The notes beneath the pieces are model-generated. The model saw only the letters and a program-made list of their open reading frames with translations, did no database searches and was not told the origin of the DNA. Below are positions 437 through 11,685 of a stretch of 59,074 bases of DNA, in pieces. How positions within the stretch are numbered: position 1 is the first letter of the stretch; each line of letters opens with the position of its first letter. The position numbers and the translations under genes were made by a program. Source of the DNA: Mycobacterium sp. (lineage in GTDB: Bacteria > Actinomycetota > Actinomycetes > Mycobacteriales > Mycobacteriaceae); contig JAOPVX010000127.1 of the NCBI GenBank assembly GCA_025965975.1, forward strand, positions 1 through 59,074, given 5' to 3'.

Positions 437-919
437 CTACGGATCAACCGTGAATGGCTGCTCGCCGCGGATGTGCTGACCTTCCTTGGTATCGACGTCG
501 ACGACGTAGGTGTACTGACCCGGCGCCTTGATCGAGAACTTCCAATGACCGCTCTCGGCGAAGCCGTTGACGCTCTGGTTGGCGGTGTAGACGACACCTC
601 CGTTCCCGTCGAGCACCGTAGAGGATTCGTGCCCCCAGATGATGGAGCCGTCAGCGGTGTTCCAGCTCAGTCCGAGGTCCGCTGACCAATGTCCGTTTGC
701 GGTTTGACCGATTCGGAAGTGGTCGTGTGCGATCTCGGTGCCATACGCAAATCCACGCTGGATGTAGATCGACAATTGCAGACCGGTCGGGTCCGCATTC
801 GCCGGCGCCGCGGCCCCTAATGCCATCATCAGCGCTGTCGCGAGTCCTACTGCCACCGCACGAGGACTGAAGATGCCGTCACCGTGGTGCCGCGTCTGCA
901 CATCATGTCGTCGACCCAC
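437..919 (-). CDS. Small secreted protein of unknown function
   Basis: About 160 residues. A Sec-type signal peptide has a hydrophobic core (AVAVGLATALMMALGAAAP) and an Ala-X-Ala cleavage site just before ADPTG. The mature part is about 115 residues, rich in Gly, Trp and beta-strand-like segments, and ends PFTVDP. It looks like a small beta-sandwich exported protein. I know no function for it. The frame stays open to a TTG at 1003. I chose the GTG at 919 because a purine-rich GGAAAGGTGG lies just upstream and the longer N-terminus would be unusual for a signal peptide. It has no Cys in a lipobox, so it is probably released or loosely wall-bound. Confidence 0.7.
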   Translation of the reverse strand: MGRRHDVQTRHHGDGIFSPRAVAVGLATALMMALGAAAPANADPTGLQLSIYIQRGFAYGTEIAHDHFRIGQTANGHWSADLGLSWNTADGSIIWGHESSTVLDGNGGVVYTANQSVNGFAESGHWKFSIKAPGQYTYVVDVDTKEGQHIRGEQPFTVDP

Positions 920-1047
920 GGGGCCCACCTTTCCGGAGTTGATTTCGCTGGATCTATGGAACGTAGTGCCGCATTGAGGTTTGCGGATTGGCAAACCGAC
1001 CAATTAGAGGTGGATTCGTACGAATGGCCTACAGAATCTCGGCCGGC

Positions 1048-2982
1048 CTAGCGCACCCGCTCCGTCGAGGTCCACCGACCGTCAGCGAACCGATGCGTGA
1101 CTTCGATGGTCGCGTAGGGCGAGTAGCCGAGGTCAGCGGTTGCACCGCTGGTGTCGGGATATACCAGCTTTTCGTCGGTGATGACCGCCGAGTCATCAAT
1201 CCGCACCTGATCGATACTGCGAGGTTCGCCGTATGTTTCACCGCGAACTGGCGAGGTTCCGGGCATGATGGTTTCGCCAACGGGCCGGGGAGACGTCGGG
1301 GTTGAAAAGTCAAACACGCCAACGAATTCCATCATGGACGTACGCCCGGCGCAGCACATGTCGAACGTGGAGCCGAAGCAAACAAAGGTCACCACCGCAT
1401 CCTCGGTCCCGTCTGCATTGGCGTCAAGCCAGCCGGCCAGCTTGGCATCTCTAATCGACGCGCCACCGAATTGTCCGGCCGCGGTCCTCGCTTCGCCTTC
1501 TCCGTTCGTCACAGTGATGGGGACAGTGTTGTCCCAGCCAGTGGAACCATTTCCGCATGTGGCGGCTGGGAATGTCATGCTGCGGATGGTGTCATCGGTG
1601 ACACCCGACGGTCTGGTCGGATTCGCGCTCGCATGCGGGGCACATCGGCAAAGGATGATGGTCTTGACGGTGCCGCTGATGGTGCCGCCTGCATCGGCGT
1701 AACCGTGGACCAGAATGCGGTAGGCATTGGGAGTGGCGGGGTCCGCGGTGTAGAGCACGCTGCGGGAACCATCGCCGTTGTCCATCGCGGCCAGCGGATT
1801 CCCGTACAGCTCGGTGGCCCGACTCAGTGGGGTACCGGGACGCACACCATCGATCGTGTGACCTCCATCGTGCGGCACGATCGAATCCAGGCTGCCATTG
1901 ACGAAGCCGAAATCGCAGTCCCGCCATACCACGACGACGCGGCCGCTGGTCGACGCGTCGGGGAAGTCGGGGTGCGCCGCCCTGATGTCGGTCCACGCCT
2001 CCCCCAGCCTGACACCGCCCAGGCCGTCCGAGGACAGCGCGGTTTCCGCCGCGCCGATGTTCTGGGTGGCCAACAGACGAGCAGCGAGCTGGCTGGCGTT
2101 GGCCGCGATGACGAACAACCCACCGGTGGCAGTGGCGATACATCTCAACTGATCGCTGGCCGGGCCGTCGGTCTTGAAGCCGACCGTGGAGATGGCCAGG
2201 TTGGGATGGGTCCGTTTCACCTGTGCGGCTTCATCACACGGCGGCTGACCGCAGGTGTCCTCACCATCGGAGACCAGCACGATGGCCTGGGCACTGTCAT
2301 CGGCGGGCAGTTGGGCGACCGCGGTACGCAGCGCCAGGCTGATCGGCGTGTATCCCGACGCCCGCAGGCCAGCGATGCCGTCTCTCATCTGGTCCCGATT
2401 CAGCCAGCTCAACGGGATCGGCGTCCGCACGTCGGTACATCCCTCGTCATGCTCGGCCTCCGTCGATCCAGTCCCGGTGCCGTAAGTCGTCAGCCCGATC
2501 GTCGCGTCATCGGGCAGCGCGTCGACCAAACCCTGAGCCGCTGCCTTCGCCGCATCGATACGAGGACCAGGCGCATCGGCCTGAGTCATCGAACCCGACG
2601 CATCCAGAATCAACACCGTCGGCACCGAGATGATCACCGGCGCAGCGGGACCCGCAGGCCCGGCCGTCGACTCCGCATCCCGACCACCCAGCGCCCACAC
2701 CGTGACACCAACCACCGCCACCAACGCGACCACCACCGCAACCGCGACCACCACCCACCCCGACCGCCACCCACCCGAGCGCTCCGATCGCGGAGCCCAC
2801 ACCGGCTGCGCCGCAACCGGTTCCGACACCGGCACCACAATCCTCGGCGGAGCGGAACCGGCATCGTCGACCCAGAACTGCCAGCCCGGCGGCGGCGCAG
2901 GCCACGACGGATCCACAGACCGACCAGGCCCAGGCGACCAACCAGGCGCCACCGGCCAACCGGGGGGCGGATTAAACCGCAT
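1048..2982 (-). CDS. Membrane-anchored von Willebrand factor A domain protein
   Basis: 644 residues from the ATG at 2982 (GGGGTGGGG upstream). Residues 1-40 are Pro/Gly/Trp repeats (PPPGWPVAPGWSPGPG), a common N-terminal tail in mycobacterial membrane proteins. A transmembrane helix lies at about 76-97. The vWA domain spans about 122-300 with an intact MIDAS start, DASGS at 127-131, plus the later Thr (GYTPIS) and Asp (VSDGEDTC) positions. The remaining about 340 residues are Cys-containing and repeat-like, resembling sensor-type extracytoplasmic domains. The expected role is metal-dependent protein-protein binding outside the membrane. The gene lies just downstream of the pseudokinase-GH3 gene on the same strand, with 44 bases between. 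In TerY-P triads vWA proteins work with kinases, but this one is membrane-bound, so equivalence is only an inference. Confidence 0.85.
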   Translation of the reverse strand: MRFNPPPGWPVAPGWSPGPGRSVDPSWPAPPPGWQFWVDDAGSAPPRIVVPVSEPVAAQPVWAPRSERSGGWRSGWVVVAVAVVVALVAVVGVTVWALGGRDAESTAGPAGPAAPVIISVPTVLILDASGSMTQADAPGPRIDAAKAAAQGLVDALPDDATIGLTTYGTGTGSTEAEHDEGCTDVRTPIPLSWLNRDQMRDGIAGLRASGYTPISLALRTAVAQLPADDSAQAIVLVSDGEDTCGQPPCDEAAQVKRTHPNLAISTVGFKTDGPASDQLRCIATATGGLFVIAANASQLAARLLATQNIGAAETALSSDGLGGVRLGEAWTDIRAAHPDFPDASTSGRVVVVWRDCDFGFVNGSLDSIVPHDGGHTIDGVRPGTPLSRATELYGNPLAAMDNGDGSRSVLYTADPATPNAYRILVHGYADAGGTISGTVKTIILCRCAPHASANPTRPSGVTDDTIRSMTFPAATCGNGSTGWDNTVPITVTNGEGEARTAAGQFGGASIRDAKLAGWLDANADGTEDAVVTFVCFGSTFDMCCAGRTSMMEFVGVFDFSTPTSPRPVGETIMPGTSPVRGETYGEPRSIDQVRIDDSAVITDEKLVYPDTSGATADLGYSPYATIEVTHRFADGRWTSTERVR

Positions 2983-3026
2983 CAACCCCACCCCTGACTC
3001 TTGCTAGCCATCTGCTGGTCACGCCG

Positions 3027-5210
3027 TCAGCCGCCGCACGAACCCACATGCTTTCCGGCCGCCACATGATGTAAAGCATCATCGACACGGCCGGCCCGGA
3101 GATCGCCGGAGTTGTAGGCCTCTACCAGCCGATCCAACACAGCAGGAACCTGGTCGGTGGTGATCCACAGAGCCGTATCGGCGCCCGCTTGCAACGCCCG
3201 CAGCGCAGCCTCGGCGACGCCGTAGCGCGAAGTGATCGCGGCCATACTGGACAGGTCATCGGTGAACACCCAACCGGTGAAAGGGGTTCCGCCGTAGTCG
3301 CCGGAGCGCAGAAGCGCGTACGCCGCCGGGCTCAGGCTTGCAGGTTCAGTGCCGGTAAGTTCTGGCACCTGTAGGTGGCCCACCATGACGGCGACGGGCG
3401 GCTGGGCGATCAGCGTTCGATAGGGAATGAGGTCGTCGTCCTTTAGACTCGATAGGGGAGGCGTCGTCACCTGGCCCGTGTGGGAGTCGCCGGAACCGTG
3501 CCCGTGTCCCGGAAAATGTTTCAGCACAGGCATCACACCTGCATCGCGAAGCCCTTGGGTATACACCTGCGCGAATCGCATGACAGTGTCGGGGTCTGCG
3601 CCGAAGGATCGGTCGCCGATGACGCTGTCGTCGGGCGCTGCGGTGACATCGACAACCGGCGCGAAATCGACAGTGATGCCAAGGGCACGCATTTTGCGGC
3701 CACGGTCCAGCGCGATGGCGTAAACCTCAGGGGGAGTGCGTGTCTGGGCAAGCACGCGCGGCGACGGCTGTTCCCCAATGAGTTTCGCCAGTCGCTCGAC
3801 CCGACCGCCTTCCTCGTCCACGCTGACGGCGAGGGGAAAGGGGCCGCTCGTTGCGGCGATTGCCGCCAGGGATCCGTCGTTGAGCATTGACAGGTCAGTC
3901 CAGCTGCCGATGAAAATGCCGCCGACATGCTGGGTGGCGACGACTTGGCGCGCGTCGTCGGCGTCCGTCACCCCCACCATCAACAGCTGAGCCAGCTTGT
4001 CGCGGATAGGCATTTGGGCAAGCATCGCTGCCGCGGGATCGGTACAGGCCGGTACGCCGGCGGACGCCACGGAGGCCGCAACCGTCGAGGATGGTGCCGC
4101 AGAGGGATTTTGCGGTTCGATCGGTGACGGCCCCCGCCGGTGTGAGCTGAACATGAACGCGCCCACCACAAGCGCTGCCGCAACGATGATCCCAATGATC
4201 GCCGGCTTGAGTACGCCGCGCGCCTGTGGCCCGGGCTCGCGGGCTTCGGGCTGACCCTGTGGCGACGCCGAGGGCTTGCCCGACTGCGTGATCGGTGGCC
4301 AGGCATCGACGGCGCGTTCGACGTCAGCCGCCTTCTCTCTTCGCGTCGTCGCGGGCGGCATCGGTGTGGGTGCGGTGATCGGTCGCTCGGCGCTCGCCGG
4401 TGGGCCCAAGTCGGCGACAAACGCACGGCACGTCGGGTATCGCGTCTCGGGATCGGCGGCGAGTGCCCTACTTAACGCGACGCGCACCTCATCCACAGCC
4501 GGACCATCCGCCGTGCGAGCCAGCTCACGAAGGTGGTGCCCGCCACCGCGATTGTCGGTACCGATGTCGGGTCGGATGCCTGCGAGCATGTGCAGCGCGG
4601 ACGCCGCAAGTCCGTATTGGTCGACACGGCTATCGAGCTGATCGGTGTGTGTTGTCTGCTCGGGTGCGGAGTAGGCATCCGGCGCAACGGCCGGCCAGCG
4701 GTTGACGATCTCACCGATGCCGAGGTCGGTGAGAACGATCTGAAACGCCGCCGAGTCGGGATTGGCGATCACGATGTTGGTCGGCTTGACCCGTAGGTGC
4801 AGGACATCGTTTCGGTGTGCGTAGTCGAGTGCCTGGGCGATCGCTGCGGTGATGGTCAGTACGGCATCGCCGGGGATGCCGGTGGGATATCGGTCCTGAA
4901 GCCACTGCAGGGCATTGGCCCCGTCCACGTAGTCCGACGCCACCCACAGCGCGGCGCCGTCGGCGCCCCAGTCGCGGACGCGCGCAATGTGCGGATGACC
5001 GAGCGCGCCGGCACGCTCCAGTGTCTGGTCAAGTCTTGCGCGCAAACCACGGTCGGTGGCCACCTCGGATCGGATGATTTTCAGTGCGACCGGCCGACGC
5101 AGGTCGGGGTGCCGAGCCACATAGACAGCGCCAACGCTGCCCGTCCCGAGATATCGCTGCAGCGTGTAACCCGCATAAGTCTCCCCGGCGGTCAGTGGCG
5201 GGCTTTGCAC
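3027..5210 (-). CDS. Protein kinase-like domain fused to extracytoplasmic GH3 beta-N-acetylglucosaminidase
   Basis: 727 residues, GTG start. Residues 13-268 are a Ser/Thr kinase fold: glycine loop GTGSVGAVY (22-30), Lys44 in VALK, DLG at 162-164 and APE at 182-184. The catalytic-loop HRD is replaced by HLR (138-140), so the catalytic base Asp is absent and phosphotransfer is doubtful. A Pro-rich linker leads to a transmembrane helix at 333-355. Residues about 396-718 form a GH3/NagZ-type domain with DEEGGRVER (465-473), KHFPGHG (564-570), the Asp-Ser-His acid/base motif (575-577) and the TDDLSSM nucleophile region (650-656). The hydrolase should therefore sit outside the membrane and act on N-acetylglucosaminyl wall fragments, like mycobacterial LpqI. 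The pairing of a likely pseudokinase with a wall hydrolase in one chain is odd. Confidence 0.9.
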   Translation of the reverse strand: MQSPPLTAGETYAGYTLQRYLGTGSVGAVYVARHPDLRRPVALKIIRSEVATDRGLRARLDQTLERAGALGHPHIARVRDWGADGAALWVASDYVDGANALQWLQDRYPTGIPGDAVLTITAAIAQALDYAHRNDVLHLRVKPTNIVIANPDSAAFQIVLTDLGIGEIVNRWPAVAPDAYSAPEQTTHTDQLDSRVDQYGLAASALHMLAGIRPDIGTDNRGGGHHLRELARTADGPAVDEVRVALSRALAADPETRYPTCRAFVADLGPPASAERPITAPTPMPPATTRREKAADVERAVDAWPPITQSGKPSASPQGQPEAREPGPQARGVLKPAIIGIIVAAALVVGAFMFSSHRRGPSPIEPQNPSAAPSSTVAASVASAGVPACTDPAAAMLAQMPIRDKLAQLLMVGVTDADDARQVVATQHVGGIFIGSWTDLSMLNDGSLAAIAATSGPFPLAVSVDEEGGRVERLAKLIGEQPSPRVLAQTRTPPEVYAIALDRGRKMRALGITVDFAPVVDVTAAPDDSVIGDRSFGADPDTVMRFAQVYTQGLRDAGVMPVLKHFPGHGHGSGDSHTGQVTTPPLSSLKDDDLIPYRTLIAQPPVAVMVGHLQVPELTGTEPASLSPAAYALLRSGDYGGTPFTGWVFTDDLSSMAAITSRYGVAEAALRALQAGADTALWITTDQVPAVLDRLVEAYNSGDLRAGRVDDALHHVAAGKHVGSCGG

Positions 5211-5337: not shown

Positions 5338-6255
5338 TCAGGGTAGGTAGCCCGCCGTCGGTTGGACCCACAGCTTTGTCGCTACGGATCTGGCCAGAAC
5401 CAGTGCCACGACAGCGAGCAACGCCGGCAGCACCAGATGGAAAATGATGAATTCAGAGCTTAGGCTCGAGATTTTGTCGTTGAGGGCGCCAGCGTACTTA
5501 TCGGCGAAACTGTCAATGCGAGACGTGTTTATGCCGAACTGTGTCGCGATGGCGTCCACTTTGTTCATCACACCGGTGACGGCGCCTGTCAATGCGTTCG
5601 CAGCCTTGTTCACGGCGACAGCGAGGAGCAGGTTGGCCGCTACCACAATGCCATTGCCGGCCATCACCAGCTTGAGGCTGCTGGAGTTTCGCTGCCATAA
5701 CAGGAACCCGGCCAGTAACAGCAGTGGAACAGCAACAATTTCGGCGATCGTTGCCGCCATCGTGAGGTAGTACCAGCCGCTGCCCGATGGCAGGTGCTTC
5801 GCGTATTTGTAGAACTTGAACAGCAATTTGATCTGGTCAAAGCGCTGCACGACCGTCACGGCTGCCCACAAACCGCCGACGATGCTCAAGATGGCCGCGG
5901 TCTTCGGCGCGCCCTCACCAGAACCGAGGAACGTACCGACTGACCAGCCCGTCGGCTGCCCCGGCTGCTGGGCAGCCGGCTGCCAGGCGGGGGTTATCGC
6001 TTGCCCGCCACCGTAGGGATTGACTAGGGGTGCCGGCGCGTATGGGTCCGGCGGGGTGACGTCGTATGGATTCGGCGCGTATGGACTCTGCAAGGGTGGT
6101 GGGGCCTGATAGCCACTACCATCGGACGCGGCGGGGTACGGCTGTGGGCCGGGGGAGGCCGGCGGTGGCGCCAGGTGCGGGTTTGGCGCCGATTGATCCG
6201 TGCCTCCGTAGGTGTAGCCCTTGCCGAACTTGCTCGGTGGCAACTGATCGGTCAT
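5338..6255 (-). CDS. Proline-rich multi-pass membrane protein
   Basis: 305 residues with an ATG at 6255 and a strong AGAGGGGG ribosome site. Residues 1-100 are a Pro/Tyr/Gly-rich cytoplasmic tail (PPSKFGKGYTYGG, PYAPNPYDVTPPDPYAPAP). About four hydrophobic segments follow (AAILSIVGGLWAAVTV; a pair around IAEIVAVPLLLLAGFLLW and IVVAANLLLAVAV; and a C-terminal FIIFHLVLPALLAVVALVLA). Between the last two is an amphipathic stretch with many Ala and Asp. Such tails are common in actinobacterial membrane proteins near Ser/Thr kinases. I do not recognise the family. It lies upstream of the kinase-GH3 gene on the same strand with 127 bases between, so an operon is possible but not certain. Confidence 0.8.
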   Translation of the reverse strand: MTDQLPPSKFGKGYTYGGTDQSAPNPHLAPPPASPGPQPYPAASDGSGYQAPPPLQSPYAPNPYDVTPPDPYAPAPLVNPYGGGQAITPAWQPAAQQPGQPTGWSVGTFLGSGEGAPKTAAILSIVGGLWAAVTVVQRFDQIKLLFKFYKYAKHLPSGSGWYYLTMAATIAEIVAVPLLLLAGFLLWQRNSSSLKLVMAGNGIVVAANLLLAVAVNKAANALTGAVTGVMNKVDAIATQFGINTSRIDSFADKYAGALNDKISSLSSEFIIFHLVLPALLAVVALVLARSVATKLWVQPTAGYLP

Positions 6256-6735: not shown

Positions 6736-7247
6736 ACCAAGAAATTCCGCCGCTGGCCGGCGAACAGGTTATCTTCGCCGCGGACTTCACCCCCTCACCG
6801 ATACTTCGCAACAACAAGTCGGGCTTGATAATTACCAGTGAGCGCGTGGCGGTCCTGCACCCGCAACACGTCTTCCTGTTCTTCCAGGTCGGGCAGACCG
6901 TTTCGAGCGCGCCGATCAGCAAGCTCGCCGAGGTCACCGTCGGGCGCTTGCTCTCGCGCTCCCACCTGCGGTCCGCCATTTTTGCCGGCTTTATCGGCCT
7001 TTTCGCCCTCACCATGCAGAGCACCTTGGATGCCATCATGGGTCCGTTGTCGATACTGGTCGTGTTGCTCGCGTTCGGGGTGGCGGCATTTCAGTTGTGG
7101 TTGGCACGCCACCTGGGCATGACAGTTCAGCACGCCGGCGGCGGAACACTGTCAGTGCGTGCCGATCGCGCCGAGCATCAGATGTTGCTGGCCGCAGCCG
7201 ATCTCACTCAGCAACTGATGATCGGGCGCAAGCCGGCGACTCCGTAG
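6726..7247 (+). CDS. Membrane protein with bacterial PH-like domain
   Basis: 173 residues starting at the ATG that gives MPAYQEIPPL. A longer in-frame start at 6663 would add 21 residues lacking coding character. The first about 70 residues read like a bacterial PH-like fold (EQVIFAADFTPSP, LIITSERVAVLHPQ). Two hydrophobic helices with a short turn follow (SAIFAGFIGLFALTM; ILVVLLAFGVAAFQLWLA). The C-terminus resumes soluble beta and helix character (LSVRADRAEHQMLLAAADL). Such small PH-like membrane proteins usually act in membrane-associated complexes. No catalytic motif is seen. It stands alone on the plus strand, divergent from the kinase-GH3 side and 181 bases before the first kinase-like gene. 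Confidence 0.75.
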   Translation: MPAYQEIPPLAGEQVIFAADFTPSPILRNNKSGLIITSERVAVLHPQHVFLFFQVGQTVSSAPISKLAEVTVGRLLSRSHLRSAIFAGFIGLFALTMQSTLDAIMGPLSILVVLLAFGVAAFQLWLARHLGMTVQHAGGGTLSVRADRAEHQMLLAAADLTQQLMIGRKPATP

Positions 7248-7428
7248 GTGGCGGCGGGCACATGCCCGATCAAACGGAGGCGGATCGCTCCGGACTCCCA
7301 CGGCAACCATCATGGTTTGATGCCGGCGAGGACGCTGAGCACCGCGACGATACCGGTGTCAGCACCTAAACCGGCAGCCTCGCCCTCCAACCGCGGAAGC
7401 CCCGACTGGTCGACGAGGGAGGTCACCG

Positions 7429-9043
7429 ATGCAGATGGTGACTTTGGCTGACGGTTCCCCAATCGAGTTGGAAGCTGAGCTGGCCCGTGCCGGCGAGGGC
7501 ACCGTCTACCTGGTCGAAGCCCACCCGGAATGGGTGGCAAAGATCTTCCATCCGCACCTGAGTGATCGGTGGGCGAAGCTCGCAAAGATAACGGCGATGG
7601 CCGCACAACCGCCGCACGGCGCGGTTCAGTCTGACGGATTCGTGGTGTTGGCCTGGCCCCAGCTCGTTCTGAATGGAGACGCCGGGGCGTGCGGATATGT
7701 CATGGCCCGTGTCGACACTGCCAACGCGGTCGAGATTCACGCCGTGTCCAACCCGTCGGCTCGCGCGGCGCCGCCGCCCTCAGCGCCCCAGTGGACCGCC
7801 CGCCTCACCTGGATGCATCTTGTGACCATCGCGGCAAACCTGTGCCTTGCCGTCGACGCGGTCCACCGTACTGATGCGGTCATCGGGGACTTTCAGGAGC
7901 GCAACATCTTGGTCTCCGACACCAGCCGCGTCACCCTGGTGGACTGCGACTCTATCCAGTTCGCTTCGCCTTCGGGCCACCGATTCTTGTGTGCGGTAGC
8001 CCGACCGGAGTTCACCGCACCAGAACTTGCTGGAGTTGATCTTCACAGCCAGATCCGCGAGCCGTCGTCGGATCTGTTCGCTTTGGCGGCGCATATTCAT
8101 CAGCTCCTCATGGCGGGCAATCATCCGTTTCTGCGCGGTACTGGGCGGGGGCGGGCGAACAGCCGGACGCGCTGAGCCTCGCCAACACCGGGTCGCGCGC
8201 AGGGCGCCCGGCTCGCCGCTGCTCACCCACCCACTCGCGCCGCCAGTCACGTTTCTGCCCAACGACATTCAGTTACTCTTCGCCCGCGCCTTGACCGACG
8301 GTGCGCGCGACCCAGCGACCCGGCCCACCGCGACCGAATGGCGAGACGCGTTGCTGCGCATCACAACGGCGCCGTGTCGAGCCGGACTCCATCAGGTTCC
8401 GCTGGGCTGTTATCTGTGCCCATGGTGCACCATCGAGAACGAGCGCCACACGCGCAGAAAGCGCGCGCACAACACACCTCCGCCGGATCAGACGATCCAC
8501 TGGACCGATTCCGCCAAGGCCAGCGGTCCCACAGGGTCAACCGCCGGTGCCGCGACACCACCCCCACCGCCACCCACCGCAGGCCCACGCCCACAACAGC
8601 ATCGACCTCGCCGTTCCGACGATTCCGCCCGTCCATCCCACGCTGTTTCGGGCGGGATCGGATTTGTGACTGGAAACTGGCCAGCAGTCTTGGCGTACCG
8701 GTCTCTCGGTAGCGCCTTCGGTACCGCGGCCGCGTTCGGTGTGTATCTCACCCATTTCGTCGCCGGTGCGATATTGCTCGTCTTTACCGTCGCGCTCGCG
8801 GTCGGGGCCATATTGTGTGTTCGGCGCAATCACGTTGGGAAAACGTGGATTACGGTTGGCTGTGTTGGCCTGATCTGTTACACGGTTGCGGCCGGGATGG
8901 GCAGCTCGCCGCTGCTGCCCTACATCAGCGCCCTCGGCTACCCCCACGAGCCCGTTGACGCCTGGCTATGGAATGCGCTCGGCATCGGCCTACCCGCCGT
9001 TGGGGCCGCCGTAGTGAGAAAGCTGGATCGGAGTCGGCTGTAA
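7429..9043 (+). pseudogene. YegI/TerY-P-type protein kinase-like gene with two frameshifts
   Basis: Starts at an ATG at 7429 after a GGGAGG site. The first frame (to 8175) gives 248 residues with an ARAGEGTV loop, Lys38 (VAKIFHP), GDFQERNIL (Asp154, Asn159), LVDCDS (Asp172) and TAPEL. Alignment by eye with the convergent paralogue at 9209-10702 shows homology moving to a second frame at about 8147-8151 (GEQPDALSLANTGSRAG). It moves to a third at about 8195-8200 (HPLAPPVTFLPND) and runs on to 9043. Each shift is explained by one missing G in a G-run. Restored, the protein would be about 538 residues: kinase fold, a zinc ribbon (C-x-x-x-H, CPWC), a Pro-rich linker and several C-terminal membrane helices. 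As given it is broken. Sequencing undercall in homopolymers is the simplest reading, true decay the alternative. Confidence 0.75.
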
Positions 9044-9208: not shown

Positions 9209-10702
9209 TCAAAACGGCGTTGTGCGAGTGATCGTATTCGTGACGGTTGGCGGCGGTGTATGCCAGTCAGCCCTGTCCTGCGCATTTAGCACAATCAGAA
9301 TCGCGACCAGGATCGCCAGCACGCCGAACACGCCCGCGGCCCACAAGAGCGCTCGCTGGGCCGAAGACATAGCACGCCGCGGCCGGGGAGTGGTGGCGTT
9401 GCTTGTTGCGGGCTGTGCCCCTCCGGTGGACGTCGATCGGCGCCGAGTGGGATTGGCTGCCGGACGCGACGGTGTTGATGGAGGTGCAAACCACGAGATC
9501 TGCTGCGCGGACAGGGCTGCGGCGGCGGTTTTGCGGACGTCACGCCGGTGGGTGCGTTCACCGCTGATGGAGCACCACGGGCAGCCTCGGCCACCGGCCG
9601 GGATCTGGTGGCCACGTTGGCACTGGGTCACGCGTACCGCCAGTAGCGCATGGCGCCATTCGTCGGCGGTCGGCCTTGCGTTGGGGTCGTGTGCGCCGAC
9701 GGTGAACGCTCGCGCGAAGAGTCGAAGGAGGTCGTCAGGCAGGAAGCTCACCGACGGTGCTAACGGATGCACCCGCAACTGTGAACTCGGACCGCCAGCC
9801 CATTGGCCCTGTTTGGCCAGTGTCATCGCGCTCGGTTGCTCCCCAGGTCCCGTCCAGTTGCCGCGCAAGAACGGATGGTTGCCGCCCATCAACAACAGAT
9901 GGATATGCACGGCCAACGCAAATAGGTCAGACGACTTGTCCCGCGGCGATATTCGTAGATCCAGCCCCGCCAGCTCGGGGGCGGTGAATTCCGCTCTGGC
10001 CACCCCACACAGATACTGTCGACCGCGAGTGTCAGTGAACTGCATCGAATCACAGTCGACGAGGGTCACTCGTGCAGTATCAGACACCAAAATGTTGCGC
10101 TCCTGAAAATCCCCAATCACTGCTCGGGTGTCGTGCACGGTCTGCACGGCCAAACACAGGTTGCTGGCCACGGTGACCAGGTGTTGCCACGTGATGTGGC
10201 GGGGCCACTGTGGCGCAGTTGATGCCGGCTCGGTGCGGTTGGAGGGGTTGCTGACCATATGGATCTCCACCGCGGTGGAGGTGTCGATGCGCGGCATGGT
10301 GTAGCCAACTGCGCCGCCGGGCTCATCGATCAAGAATGTCGGCGAGGTCAGGACGACGAATCCGTCGGGCTGCGTCGCGCCTGGCGGCCGTGAGTTGACC
10401 ATAGCGGCGACCTTGTCGTGCTTTTCAGACAGATCCTTGAGCTCCGGATGGAAGATTTTCACCACCGCGTCACGCCGGTCGACGATCTCGCGGATCGTGC
10501 CCTCGCCCGCGCGTGCCAGTACCGACCCCAGCGACAGCTCACCCCAACCCTGTGCGAATACCGAATGCACTGCTACCGGCAGCGAATCGCCGCAAGACCG
10601 AGCCGCGCCGAATATTGCGCTGATGGTGCGCGTCGTCGCCCCGCTCCCGACGGGGCGGGTGGCCAGCACGGCTCCAGACTCCAATGCCTCGGCGATATCC
10701 AA
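9209..10702 (-). CDS. Atypical protein kinase with zinc ribbon and C-terminal membrane anchor (YegI/TerY-P-triad type)
   Basis: 497 residues from a TTG at 10702. A GTG at 10570 would give 453 residues and begins where similarity to the paralogue at 7429 begins. Motifs on the long numbering: glycine loop ARAGEGTI (63-70), Lys82 in VVKIFHP, catalytic GDFQERNIL (Asp198, Asn203), metal-binding Asp216 in LVDCDS and TAPEL (240-244). A zinc ribbon uses Cys361, His365, Cys374 and Cys377 (CPWC). A low-complexity Pro/Thr linker and one transmembrane helix (451-472) follow, leaving a short outer tail. GDxxERN..VDCDS is characteristic of kinases found with vWA and PP2C proteins in TerY-P triads and yegI-yegK-yegL. 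No PP2C gene is visible here. Unlike the kinase-GH3 protein, its catalytic residues look complete. Confidence 0.85.
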   Translation of the reverse strand: MDIAEALESGAVLATRPVGSGATTRTISAIFGAARSCGDSLPVAVHSVFAQGWGELSLGSVLARAGEGTIREIVDRRDAVVKIFHPELKDLSEKHDKVAAMVNSRPPGATQPDGFVVLTSPTFLIDEPGGAVGYTMPRIDTSTAVEIHMVSNPSNRTEPASTAPQWPRHITWQHLVTVASNLCLAVQTVHDTRAVIGDFQERNILVSDTARVTLVDCDSMQFTDTRGRQYLCGVARAEFTAPELAGLDLRISPRDKSSDLFALAVHIHLLLMGGNHPFLRGNWTGPGEQPSAMTLAKQGQWAGGPSSQLRVHPLAPSVSFLPDDLLRLFARAFTVGAHDPNARPTADEWRHALLAVRVTQCQRGHQIPAGGRGCPWCSISGERTHRRDVRKTAAAALSAQQISWFAPPSTPSRPAANPTRRRSTSTGGAQPATSNATTPRPRRAMSSAQRALLWAAGVFGVLAILVAILIVLNAQDRADWHTPPPTVTNTITRTTPF

Positions 10703-10743
10703 TCGCGCGCGACGGGCCAGCGGGGTGGGGGATTGGGGCGCAT

Positions 10744-11685
10744 CTAGTCACGCAGCCCGAACAGCGCCATGGCATTCGCGTCGAGGATGGCGTGTGCCTC
10801 GCCGGGATCCGCGACGTCCATGACGTAGTCGACAGCCCGCACGAATGTGTCGCCGTCCTCGTAGGGAAAGTCGGTGCCGAGCATGAGGCGGTCGGCGCCA
10901 AACGAGTCGATGGCGCAACGCAGAGCGGGCGCGTGGCAGTGGCTGACGGTGTCGTACCACAGCCGGTGTGCGGCCTGGCTCGGCGGCTCAGGCGTGTCGG
11001 GCGCCTCCACCGCGATGTGGTCGTCGGCCCGGCGGGTGATCATCGGCAGCGCGCCGCCCAGATGCGAGCAGATGATCTTCACCGCCGGATACCGCTGAAG
11101 GTGCCCGGAGGTGATCAACTGCATGGCGGCGATGGTGTCCTCGAACGGTGCACCGACCATCCAGGTGATCTGATGTTCGCTGACGAGCGGCGAACACGCC
11201 CCGTTGCCTACGGGATGCAAGTACAGGATCGCAGCGCGGCGATCGAGTTCGGCGAAGACGGGCTCGAACTGCGGATCGGTGATCGCGCGGTCGAGGATGC
11301 TGGTGTTCATCGTCAGACCGACCATGCCCAATTCGTCTATCGCACGCGCCATTTCGGTGATCGCGGCGTCGATATGGGGCATCGGTGTGGCCGCGAAGGC
11401 CCGGAAACGATCCGGATGTGCGGATACCAGCGCGGCGTACTCGTCGTTGACGTAGCGCGCCGCGGCGATGGCCAGGTCCTCGTCGGCGGCGTACGGCAAC
11501 TGGTGCGCCGCCGACACCACCTGCATGTCGACGCCTGCGCGATCCATCAACCGCAGCCGCGTGTCAAGCTCGGCACCACCGCCTGCGCCGATATCGCGCT
11601 GGGTGGCGGTGTCGGTTCTGCCCAGCTCAACCAGCATGTCGAGGTAAGCATCGGTCCAATAGTGCGCGTGCACATCGATACGCAT
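10744..11685 (-). CDS. Metal-dependent amidohydrolase (ACMSD-like TIM barrel)
   Basis: 313 residues from the ATG at 11685. A TTG nine bases upstream is also open. The N-terminus MRIDVHAHYW carries the first metal-binding His-x-His. A conserved LYLHPVGNG follows in the middle, then ICSHLGGALP and the C-terminal LMLGTDFPYEDGD, which holds the catalytic Asp. This is the amidohydrolase-2 / aminocarboxymuconate semialdehyde decarboxylase family: a hydrolase or non-oxidative decarboxylase acting on a small cyclic or aromatic acid in the cytoplasm. The substrate cannot be told. It sits upstream of the kinase-like gene on the same strand with 41 bases between, but is probably functionally unrelated. 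Confidence 0.85.
   Translation of the reverse strand: MRIDVHAHYWTDAYLDMLVELGRTDTATQRDIGAGGGAELDTRLRLMDRAGVDMQVVSAAHQLPYAADEDLAIAAARYVNDEYAALVSAHPDRFRAFAATPMPHIDAAITEMARAIDELGMVGLTMNTSILDRAITDPQFEPVFAELDRRAAILYLHPVGNGACSPLVSEHQITWMVGAPFEDTIAAMQLITSGHLQRYPAVKIICSHLGGALPMITRRADDHIAVEAPDTPEPPSQAAHRLWYDTVSHCHAPALRCAIDSFGADRLMLGTDFPYEDGDTFVRAVDYVMDVADPGEAHAILDANAMALFGLRD

What the first reader, a model, noticed from the sequence alone, without database searches (positions are those of the whole stretch)
3027..5210. Pseudokinase-GH3 hydrolase fusion across the membrane
One chain joins a cytoplasmic kinase fold with HRD changed to HLR (catalytic Asp lost) to an extracytoplasmic NagZ/LpqI-like GH3 domain with intact motifs. 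A receptor in reverse is possible: cytoplasmic binding of a nucleotide or partner could control wall-sugar cleavage outside. Kinases with PASTA or NHL outer domains are known. I do not know of a described kinase-GH3 pair of this kind.
Basis: partly seen in the sequence, partly recalled or inferred. Interest (0 to 1): 0.72.

Follow-up and report, generated by a model that had tools for sequence, protein, structure and literature searches.

The report
Dead-kinase and cell-wall sugar-cutter fusion
In some mycobacteria an enzyme that trims sugars from cell-wall fragments outside the cell is joined through the membrane to a kinase-shaped domain inside that has usually lost catalytic residues, which suggests an undescribed link between wall recycling and internal signalling.

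Summary
Window 3027-5210 (-) is one 727-aa frame: kinase fold (residues 5-270), one membrane helix (337-356), LpqI/NagZ-type GH3 (402-717). HRD is HLR; beta3 Lys, HRDxK Lys, Asn and DFG Asp remain. It is not an assembly error: at least 11 of 297 sampled Mycobacterium genomes carry the full-length fusion, with a wide score gap below; a twelfth was found separately; of 150 genomes of the order only two, both Mycobacterium, had it. GH3 motifs are intact in 12 of 12. The HRD Asp is lost in 8 of 12 and the beta3 Lys in 5 of 12, while the kinase half stays under purifying selection (dN/dS 0.21-0.34 in four pairs). The joining happened at least twice, perhaps three times; one apparently recent fusion has an intact kinase. 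Best reading: a PknF/PknI-like kinase-TM module replaced the lipid anchor of LpqI and became a pseudokinase scaffold tying muropeptide recycling to phospho-signalling. 'Receptor in reverse' is possible but not the best-supported option. I found no description in the library searched.

The parts
3027..5210 (-). Kinase-TM-GH3 fusion gene, 727 aa, GTG start
   Evidence: same architecture in 11 other genomes
4401..5198 (-). Cytoplasmic kinase-fold domain (residues 5-270), PknF/PknI-like
   Evidence: Pfam Pkinase 8e-23; 7naa 2e-57, PknI 1e-46; tree
5079..5081 (-). Beta3 lysine Lys44 (VALK), kept
4791..4799 (-). HRD replaced by HLR (residues 138-140); catalytic Asp lost
   Evidence: HLQ in the two closest relatives
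4719..4727 (-). DFG-equivalent DLG (162-164), metal-binding Asp kept
   Evidence: this Asp is invariant in 12 of 12
4143..4202 (-). Single transmembrane helix (residues 337-356)
   Evidence: mean hydropathy 2.42, next best segment 1.23; one such segment stands out in each of 12 fusions
4026..4142 (-). Pro/Ser/Ala-rich outer linker (residues 357-395)
   Evidence: residues 273-395 (linker plus TM) evolve fastest, dN/dS 0.46-0.69
3060..4007 (-). LpqI/NagZ-type GH3 domain (residues 402-717), extracytoplasmic
3501..3521 (-). KHFPGHG motif (564-570)
   Evidence: 12 of 12 fusions
3480..3494 (-). SGDSH (573-577), the NagZ Asp-His dyad loop
   Evidence: 12 of 12 fusions; a dyad is described for NagZ in PMC6572805, its place in this loop is recalled
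3246..3263 (-). TDDLSS (650-655), expected nucleophile Asp motif (role recalled)
   Evidence: 12 of 12 fusions
3036..4046 (-). Cys389 and Cys725 bracket the GH3 domain: the only two cysteines after the helix, a likely disulfide
   Evidence: exactly two cysteines after the helix in 12 of 12 fusions; disulfide inferred
1048..2991 (-). Downstream VWA-domain protein, 35 bases after the fusion's stop; likely same transcript
   Evidence: Pfam VWA_2 5e-11; operon inferred from spacing only
5338..6255 (-). Upstream Pro-rich, apparently membrane protein; weak homologue (25%) in the G043 fusion locus
   Evidence: no Pfam match
9209..10702 (-). Divergent kinase with zinc-ribbon-like cysteines; homologues in 4 other fusion loci
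   Evidence: Pfam Pkinase 6e-6, below gathering
7429..8175 (+). Second kinase of the same type, frame apparently broken (further homology lies in another frame, 8027-9043)
   Evidence: the break is read by eye
437..1003 (-). Small protein, apparently secreted; homologue (78%) in the G241 fusion locus

Best explanation
A membrane-anchored isoform of LpqI. A PknF/PknI-like kinase-plus-TM module has replaced the lipid anchor of LpqI. The kinase half is now a pseudokinase, kept for non-catalytic work: a cytoplasmic docking or scaffold platform, probably itself bound or phosphorylated by active kinases, that places and limits an active exo-N-acetylglucosaminidase on the outer face of the membrane. 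There the GH3 trims GlcNAc from released GlcNAc-MurNAc fragments. SHOWN by sequence: the architecture, loss of the catalytic Asp, intact GH3 motifs, purifying selection on both halves, recurrence in 12 genomes. INFERRED: GH3 activity, topology, no phosphotransfer, scaffolding, partners.
For: GH3 motifs intact in 12 of 12, kinase residues eroded differently by lineage: HRD Asp lost in 8 of 12, beta3 Lys in 5 of 12. HRD Asp lost in 0 of 35 comparison kinases. Short activation segments (7-29 residues, 11 of 12 at most 24) against 27-31 in 31 other genomic kinases. Kinase-half dN/dS 0.21, 0.34, 0.32, 0.34 in four pairs, so it is constrained although catalytic residues are gone. 91 of 116 LpqI-type frames have a lipobox by a simple pattern; the 12 fusions have a TM helix and no lipobox. 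At least two independent joinings suggest the link is useful. Two unfused LpqI genes lie head-to-head with a degenerate kinase of the same type (L010, L018). 8 of 12 fusion loci have an atypical kinase, PP2C, VWA, amidase or domain X nearby, against 0 of 27 control loci. Precedents: EssB/YukC acts as a scaffold and a scaffold role is proposed for MviN (PMC12599244, passages and section 4).
Against: No structure prediction, no expression or biochemical data. Rapid change of the kinase half (about 48% identity between the window and its nearest relatives, GH3 78-79%) is also what a loosely constrained anchor would show. One fusion (L035) keeps Lys, Asp, Lys, Asn and DFG and may be active; kinases without the HRD Asp can sometimes transfer phosphate (recalled). 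No single partner gene is present in all loci. Neighbour queries were taken from fusion loci, so each source locus matches by construction.
Confidence: 0.45

Rival explanations
1. Outside-in receptor: the GH3 domain is the sensor (and destroyer) of muropeptides and passes its occupancy through the TM helix. In the intact-kinase copy the kinase signals; in the others the pseudokinase relays to a partner kinase.
For: Receptor-kinase layout; L154b (G270) combines an intact HRD/DFG kinase and full activation segment with the start of a GH3 domain. A second, atypical kinase lies in 5 of 12 fusion loci including the window. GlcNAc-MurNAc is proposed to be sensed by mycobacteria (PMC6572805 discussion passage).
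Against: GH3 motifs are kept in 12 of 12, whereas sensor domains often lose catalysis (recalled). Catalytic residues of the kinase are lost in 11 of 12 full-length copies. A partner kinase is not present in every locus.
Confidence: 0.2
2. Passive anchor: the kinase-TM part merely replaced the lipid anchor, and the kinase half is a slowly decaying relic.
For: Seven unfused LpqI2 copies (L132, L133, L134, L136, L137, L138, L140) have a TM anchor resembling that of the G011 fusion (shared KPRL after the helix) and no kinase was found in frame with them: the kinase half can be absent. Linker and kinase evolve fastest.
Against: Kinase-half dN/dS 0.21-0.34, no internal stop in 12 copies, His138, Asp162 and other positions invariant in 12 of 12. 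A true relic would drift towards dN/dS 1.
Confidence: 0.2
3. Inside-out control: nucleotide or partner binding to the pseudokinase gates GH3 activity outside.
For: In the window Lys44, Lys142, Asn145 and Asp162 survive, so ATP binding is plausible; a signalling gene neighbourhood.
Against: Five of 12 fusions lost the ATP-binding Lys, so ordinary nucleotide control cannot be general. Linker plus TM is weakly conserved (23% identity with G241), a poor lever for a compact TIM barrel. LpqI without a kinase is active (PMC6572805).
Confidence: 0.12
4. Artefact of assembly or frameshift.
For: The window's genome is a draft of 449 contigs, and a neighbouring kinase gene (7429-9043) does look frame-broken.
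Against: Same join in 11 other genomes, four of them single-contig; no stop in the 727 codons.
Confidence: 0.01

Closest known systems
LpqI / NagZ GH3 exo-beta-N-acetylglucosaminidase (M. tuberculosis 6GFV; 4YYF, M. smegmatis source recalled)
   Same: GH3 domain aligns over its full length with the same motifs; expected substrate GlcNAc-MurNAc fragments
   Different: LpqI is a lipoprotein (PMC6572805); here the anchor is a TM helix carrying a cytoplasmic kinase fold
PknI and the kinase of PDB 7naa (PknF-like; that name is recalled)
   Same: Best solved relatives of the kinase half; same subgroup at 100/100; PknI also has a short activation segment (14) and lacks the HRDxK Lys
   Different: Both keep HRD; neither is known to me to carry a GH3 domain (only their kinase domains were seen)
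MviN/MurJ pseudokinase (ActPs3 family)
   Same: Mycobacterial pseudokinase attached to a peptidoglycan-pathway membrane protein; scaffold role proposed (PMC12599244; FhaA recruitment recalled from Gee 2012, not read)
   Different: MviN has lost Lys, HRD and DFG (VALT, L.., Y--); the window keeps Lys and the DFG Asp; the partner is a flippase (recalled), not a hydrolase
EssB/YukC pseudokinase
   Same: Single-pass membrane pseudokinase used as scaffold (PMC12599244 section 4)
   Different: Part of type VII secretion; no GH3 domain
TerY-P phosphorylation triad (VWA, PP2C, kinase; definition recalled)
   Same: Two fusion loci (G043, G200) carry VWA, PP2C and zinc-ribbon-like kinase genes
   Different: Of these the window locus has only the kinase type; no PADLOC match for the VWA and PP2C of G043 and G200

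Membership tests
LpqI/NagZ (GH3) | GH3 N-terminal (TIM barrel) domain | tested here: met
   Pfam 4e-84 over 2-314 of 316
LpqI/NagZ (GH3) | KHFPGHG, Asp-His dyad loop and nucleophile Asp | tested here: met
   KHFPGHG, SGDSH, TDDLSS in 12 of 12, aligned with 6gfv and 4yyf
LpqI/NagZ (GH3) | Lipobox lipoprotein anchor (LpqI proper) | tested here: not met
   TM helix without lipobox in the 12 fusions; lipobox pattern in 91 of 116 LpqI-type frames
LpqI/NagZ (GH3) | NCBIfam equivalog PRK05337 cut-off | tested here: not met
   138.6 bits against 207; true LpqI was not run as a control, so this may not discriminate
LpqI/NagZ (GH3) | Exo-N-acetylglucosaminidase activity | not testable with these tools
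   needs an enzyme assay
Active PknB-type Ser/Thr kinase | Beta3 Lys | tested here: met
   Lys44
Active PknB-type Ser/Thr kinase | HRD catalytic Asp | tested here: not met
   Arg140
Active PknB-type Ser/Thr kinase | DFG Asp | tested here: met
   Asp162 in DLG
Active PknB-type Ser/Thr kinase | Normal-length activation segment with Thr phosphosites | tested here: not met
   23 residues without Thr, against 27-31 in 31 other genomic kinases
PknF/PknI subgroup of mycobacterial kinases | Groups with PknI and 7naa in a kinase tree | tested here: met
   100/100 for a group of 19 of 48 rows
ActPs3 (MviN) pseudokinases | VALT, HRD and DFG all lost | tested here: not met
   window keeps Lys44 and Asp162 (motifs from PMC12599244 Table 1)
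ActPs2 and DYD pseudokinases | Beta3 Lys replaced by Arg | tested here: not met
   Lys44 in the window; Thr, not Arg, where lost in the fusions (definitions)
TerY-P triad | VWA, PP2C and kinase genes together | tested here: not met
   window locus: kinase type only, plus an unrelated VWA protein; TerY-like VWA and PP2C in 2 of 12 fusion loci; G000 has two PP2C_2 matches, both on other contigs

The most novel reading that the evidence does not exclude
Mycobacteria have repeatedly built a self-erasing muropeptide receptor by capturing LpqI as the outer domain of a PknF/PknI-type kinase. The hydrolase both reads and destroys its ligand, and over time the kinase half gives up catalysis and becomes a relay or scaffold for a neighbouring atypical kinase with PP2C, VWA and a secreted amidase. 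The G270 copy with an intact kinase would be the young stage, the window protein the mature pseudokinase stage.
Probability: 0.17. Interest if true: 0.82.

Novelty: new variant of a known kind. Interest (0 to 1): 0.6.

Why it matters
It would be a physical link, in one chain, between a muropeptide-recycling enzyme with intact motifs and a kinase-fold signalling domain across the membrane. How mycobacteria sense and control their own wall fragments is open, and deleting LpqI is reported to raise resistance to antimycobacterial agents (PMC6572805, a passage seen). A natural series, from unfused LpqI, through LpqI beside a degenerate kinase and an apparently fresh intact-kinase fusion, to older pseudokinase fusions, makes the role of the kinase half directly testable.

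Tried and rejected
Assembly artefact: rejected. Fusion as sole LpqI of the window's genome: PF00933 finds no second LpqI in G000 (its other GH3, on C256, reads by eye as a frame-broken beta-glucosidase), but the usual LpqI neighbour TetR is not found there either (best 31%), so the canonical locus is probably missing from this draft and the absence means little. TerY-P defence membership: the VWA and PP2C of G043 and G200 gave no PADLOC match, and the kinase matches to PD-T4-6 look like general kinase similarity. Mobile origin: of 18 plasmid records with a match none has a place covering 80% of the query, and the ten listed are kinase-only or GH3-only; no viral contig encoding a relative was found. 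One origin for all fusions: the kinase tree puts 12 in one clade (96/91) but the GH3 tree does not (p-AU 0.0345). Gene conversion of the GH3 half is a possible reason but the evidence is slight: between G241 and G295 the GH3 is 95-99% identical in six of seven 150-base bins (91% in the seventh), the kinase half 79-88%, the downstream flank 81-93%, but the upstream flank also reaches 99% (83-99%). Promoter and terminator scan: nothing above chance.

Not done: fold comparison (structure prediction accepted no job in three tries).

Full report
WHAT IS THERE. Window 3027-5210 on the minus strand is a single open frame of 727 codons starting with GTG. Pfam finds Pkinase (E=8e-23) and Glyco_hydro_3 (E=4e-84). 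One hydrophobic segment (337-356) separates them. The GH3 half aligns over its whole length with solved LpqI-type enzymes (4yyf, 6gfv), the kinase half with 7naa and PknI. The kinase keeps Lys44, Lys142, Asn145 and Asp162 but reads HLR where HRD is expected; its activation segment is 23 residues. Cys389 and Cys725 bracket the GH3 domain, and exactly two cysteines follow the helix in 12 of 12 fusions, as expected of an extracytoplasmic domain with a disulfide. Charge next to the helix gave only a weak orientation signal (K+R in 20 residues higher on the N side in 7 of 12, equal in 3, lower in 2), so the topology rests mainly on the domains and cysteines.

HOW COMMON. The host belongs to Mycobacterium in the broad sense (organism names of relatives). 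With a profile of six fusions, 11 of 297 sampled genomes of the genus gave a full-length match (862-1150 bits, from model position 1-3); the next match in the list has 707 bits and starts at position 291. A twelfth came (Mycolicibacterium sp. CBMA 234, L035, genome G148). Of 150 genomes sampled from the order only two had the full-length match, G000 and G011, both Mycobacterium; 14 of the 150 are listed as Mycobacterium, and the rest includes 86 genomes without any match that the output does not list. One search followed the failed, and the failed.

THE TWELVE (key: WIN=G000, L149=G043, L150=G145, L034=G008 (same protein as L007), L151=G011, L152=G289, L153=G241, L154=G270, L155=G295, L156=G200, L157=G121, L035=G148). 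GH3 motifs DEEGGR, KHFPGHG, SGDSH and TDDLSS: 12 of 12. HRD Asp lost: 8 of 12, replaced by R, Q, A or H. Beta3 Lys lost (to T): 5 of 12. Only L035 keeps Lys, Asp, Lys, Asn and DFG, and its activation segment is 20 residues. His138 and Asp162 are invariant. Activation segments, read from an alignment, are 7-29 residues in the 12 (11 of 12 at most 24; four have no recognisable APE) and 27-31 in 31 other genomic kinases. In the kinase tree set, 0 of 35 non-fusion kinases lack the HRD Asp; 2 of 35 (the two LpqI-adjacent kinases below) lack the beta3 Lys; 3 of 35 (those two and PknI) lack the HRDxK Lys. The comparison kinases are mainly the best-scoring ones of G000 and G270 and were filtered for long matches, so they lean towards typical kinases.

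SELECTION. Nei-Gojobori dN/dS for the kinase half, linker plus TM, and GH3: G241/G295 0.21, 0.53, 0.12; G145/G008 0.34, 0.69, 0.14; window/G241 0.32, 0.50, 0.12; window/G295 0.34, 0.46, 0.13. The kinase half is constrained although its catalytic residues are gone. dS for the window pairs is above 1 and so rough.

ORIGINS. A thirteenth, incomplete protein, L154b, lies just after L154 in G270 and is cut by the contig end. It has an intact kinase (VALK-type Lys, HRDVKPAN, DFG, 30-residue activation segment) joined to the start of a GH3. Its kinase falls outside the clade of the other 12. Its GH3 part falls among ordinary LpqI with 30% of columns filled, and it is 92.8% identical over 332 bases to the ordinary lpqI beside aftD in the same genome. 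That is a separate and probably recent joining. In G145 and G008 the fusion sits at the ordinary lpqI place between aftD and the TetR gene, and its GH3 groups (96/92) with the unfused LpqI of G055 and G112, where a degenerate kinase gene of the same type lies head-to-head with lpqI. The GH3 tree weakly rejects one clade for the 12 (p-AU 0.0345); the kinase tree supports one (96/91). So two origins are well supported and a third is likely but contradicted by the kinase tree, whose long branches may attract.

NEIGHBOURS. tblastn with neighbour proteins: an atypical kinase of the window's 9209-10702 type in 5 of 12 fusion loci, amidase_2 in 4, a domain without Pfam match (domain X) in 6, TerY-like VWA plus PP2C in 2; at least one of these in 8 of 12, none in 27 control loci around unfused LpqI (11 fetched regions and 16 chosen; three shorter loci were left out). 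Each query came from a fusion locus, so one match per query is by construction. Of the remaining four, two are the aftD-TetR loci and two (L154, L035) have neither. In the window the fusion is followed after 35 bases by another VWA-domain protein. The VWA, PP2C and kinase genes occur together only at G043 and G200; G000 has two PP2C_2 matches, both on other contigs.

STAND-ALONE LPQI. A separate LpqI-type GH3 exists in G043, G011, G148, G289, G241, G295, G121 and G200, and in pieces at contig ends in G270. G145 (96% complete) and G008 (70% complete) show only the fusion. G000 shows no other LpqI but also lacks the usual neighbouring TetR, so its canonical locus is probably missing from the draft. 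91 of 116 LpqI-type frames show a lipobox by pattern; seven unfused copies have instead a TM helix resembling that of the G011 fusion, so loss of the kinase half after fusion is possible.

MECHANISM. LpqI is an exo-acting N-acetylglucosaminidase on soluble fragments, not an autolysin (PMC6572805, section 7 read; other passages). The fusion should therefore act in muropeptide recycling. Of the readings I favour a scaffold or docking role for the pseudokinase (0.45), then an outside-in receptor (0.20), a passive anchor (0.20) and inside-out control (0.12). Ordinary nucleotide gating cannot be general, because five fusions lost the ATP-binding Lys. EssB/YukC is described as a scaffold and the same is proposed for MviN (PMC12599244: outline, passages, sections 4 part 1, 6, 7, 12, 13); other bacterial pseudokinases there have gained new enzyme activities, which is not excluded here.

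NOVELTY. No paper in the held library has both LpqI and 'kinase domain'. The listings of searches (15 of 92 shown; 15 of 137; 7 of 7; 15 of 16; 10 of 3,051) named no kinase-GH3 chain. The review of bacterial pseudokinase families has no occurrence of hydrolase or NagZ. PMC13041923 was seen in passages only. The library lacks most subscription journals, and annotation databases were not searched for the protein by name. Recalled and not tested here: the PknF identity of 7naa, the pseudokinase-like conformation reported for PknI, MviN-FhaA, and the TerY-P literature (two papers seen as a search listing).

Noticed in passing
window 7429-9043 (+): A kinase gene of the same type as 9209-10702 whose homology runs out of frame near its middle (7429-8175, then 8027-9043): broken gene or sequencing error.
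   Followed up: partly
L154 (G270 C5) 6790-8919 and 9489-11036: Two kinase-GH3 proteins in tandem, one with a degenerate and one with an intact kinase; the second is cut by the contig end, and the contig's other end holds a GH3 C-terminal part.
   Followed up: partly
L010 (G055) and L018/L061 (G112): Unfused LpqI head-to-head with a separate degenerate kinase (beta3 Lys to Arg, HGDVTAA, 6-residue segment). In G055 the kinase lies between lpqI and aftD; in G112 the contig ends inside the kinase, and its LpqI has a TM anchor instead of a lipobox.
   Followed up: partly
L151 9052-11484, L152 4124-6601, L157 8716-9981: A protein with a conserved domain without Pfam match lies directly upstream of the fusion in three genomes; the same domain matches in kinase and PQQ proteins of other fusion loci (L156, L149).
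   Followed up: partly
G000 C256:16936-17564 (L002): A beta-glucosidase-like GH3 gene in the window's genome that appears frame-broken.
   Followed up: no
L153 and L155 fusion genes: GH3 halves are 95-99% identical in six of seven 150-base bins while the kinase half is 79-88%: a possible recombination mosaic.
   Followed up: partly
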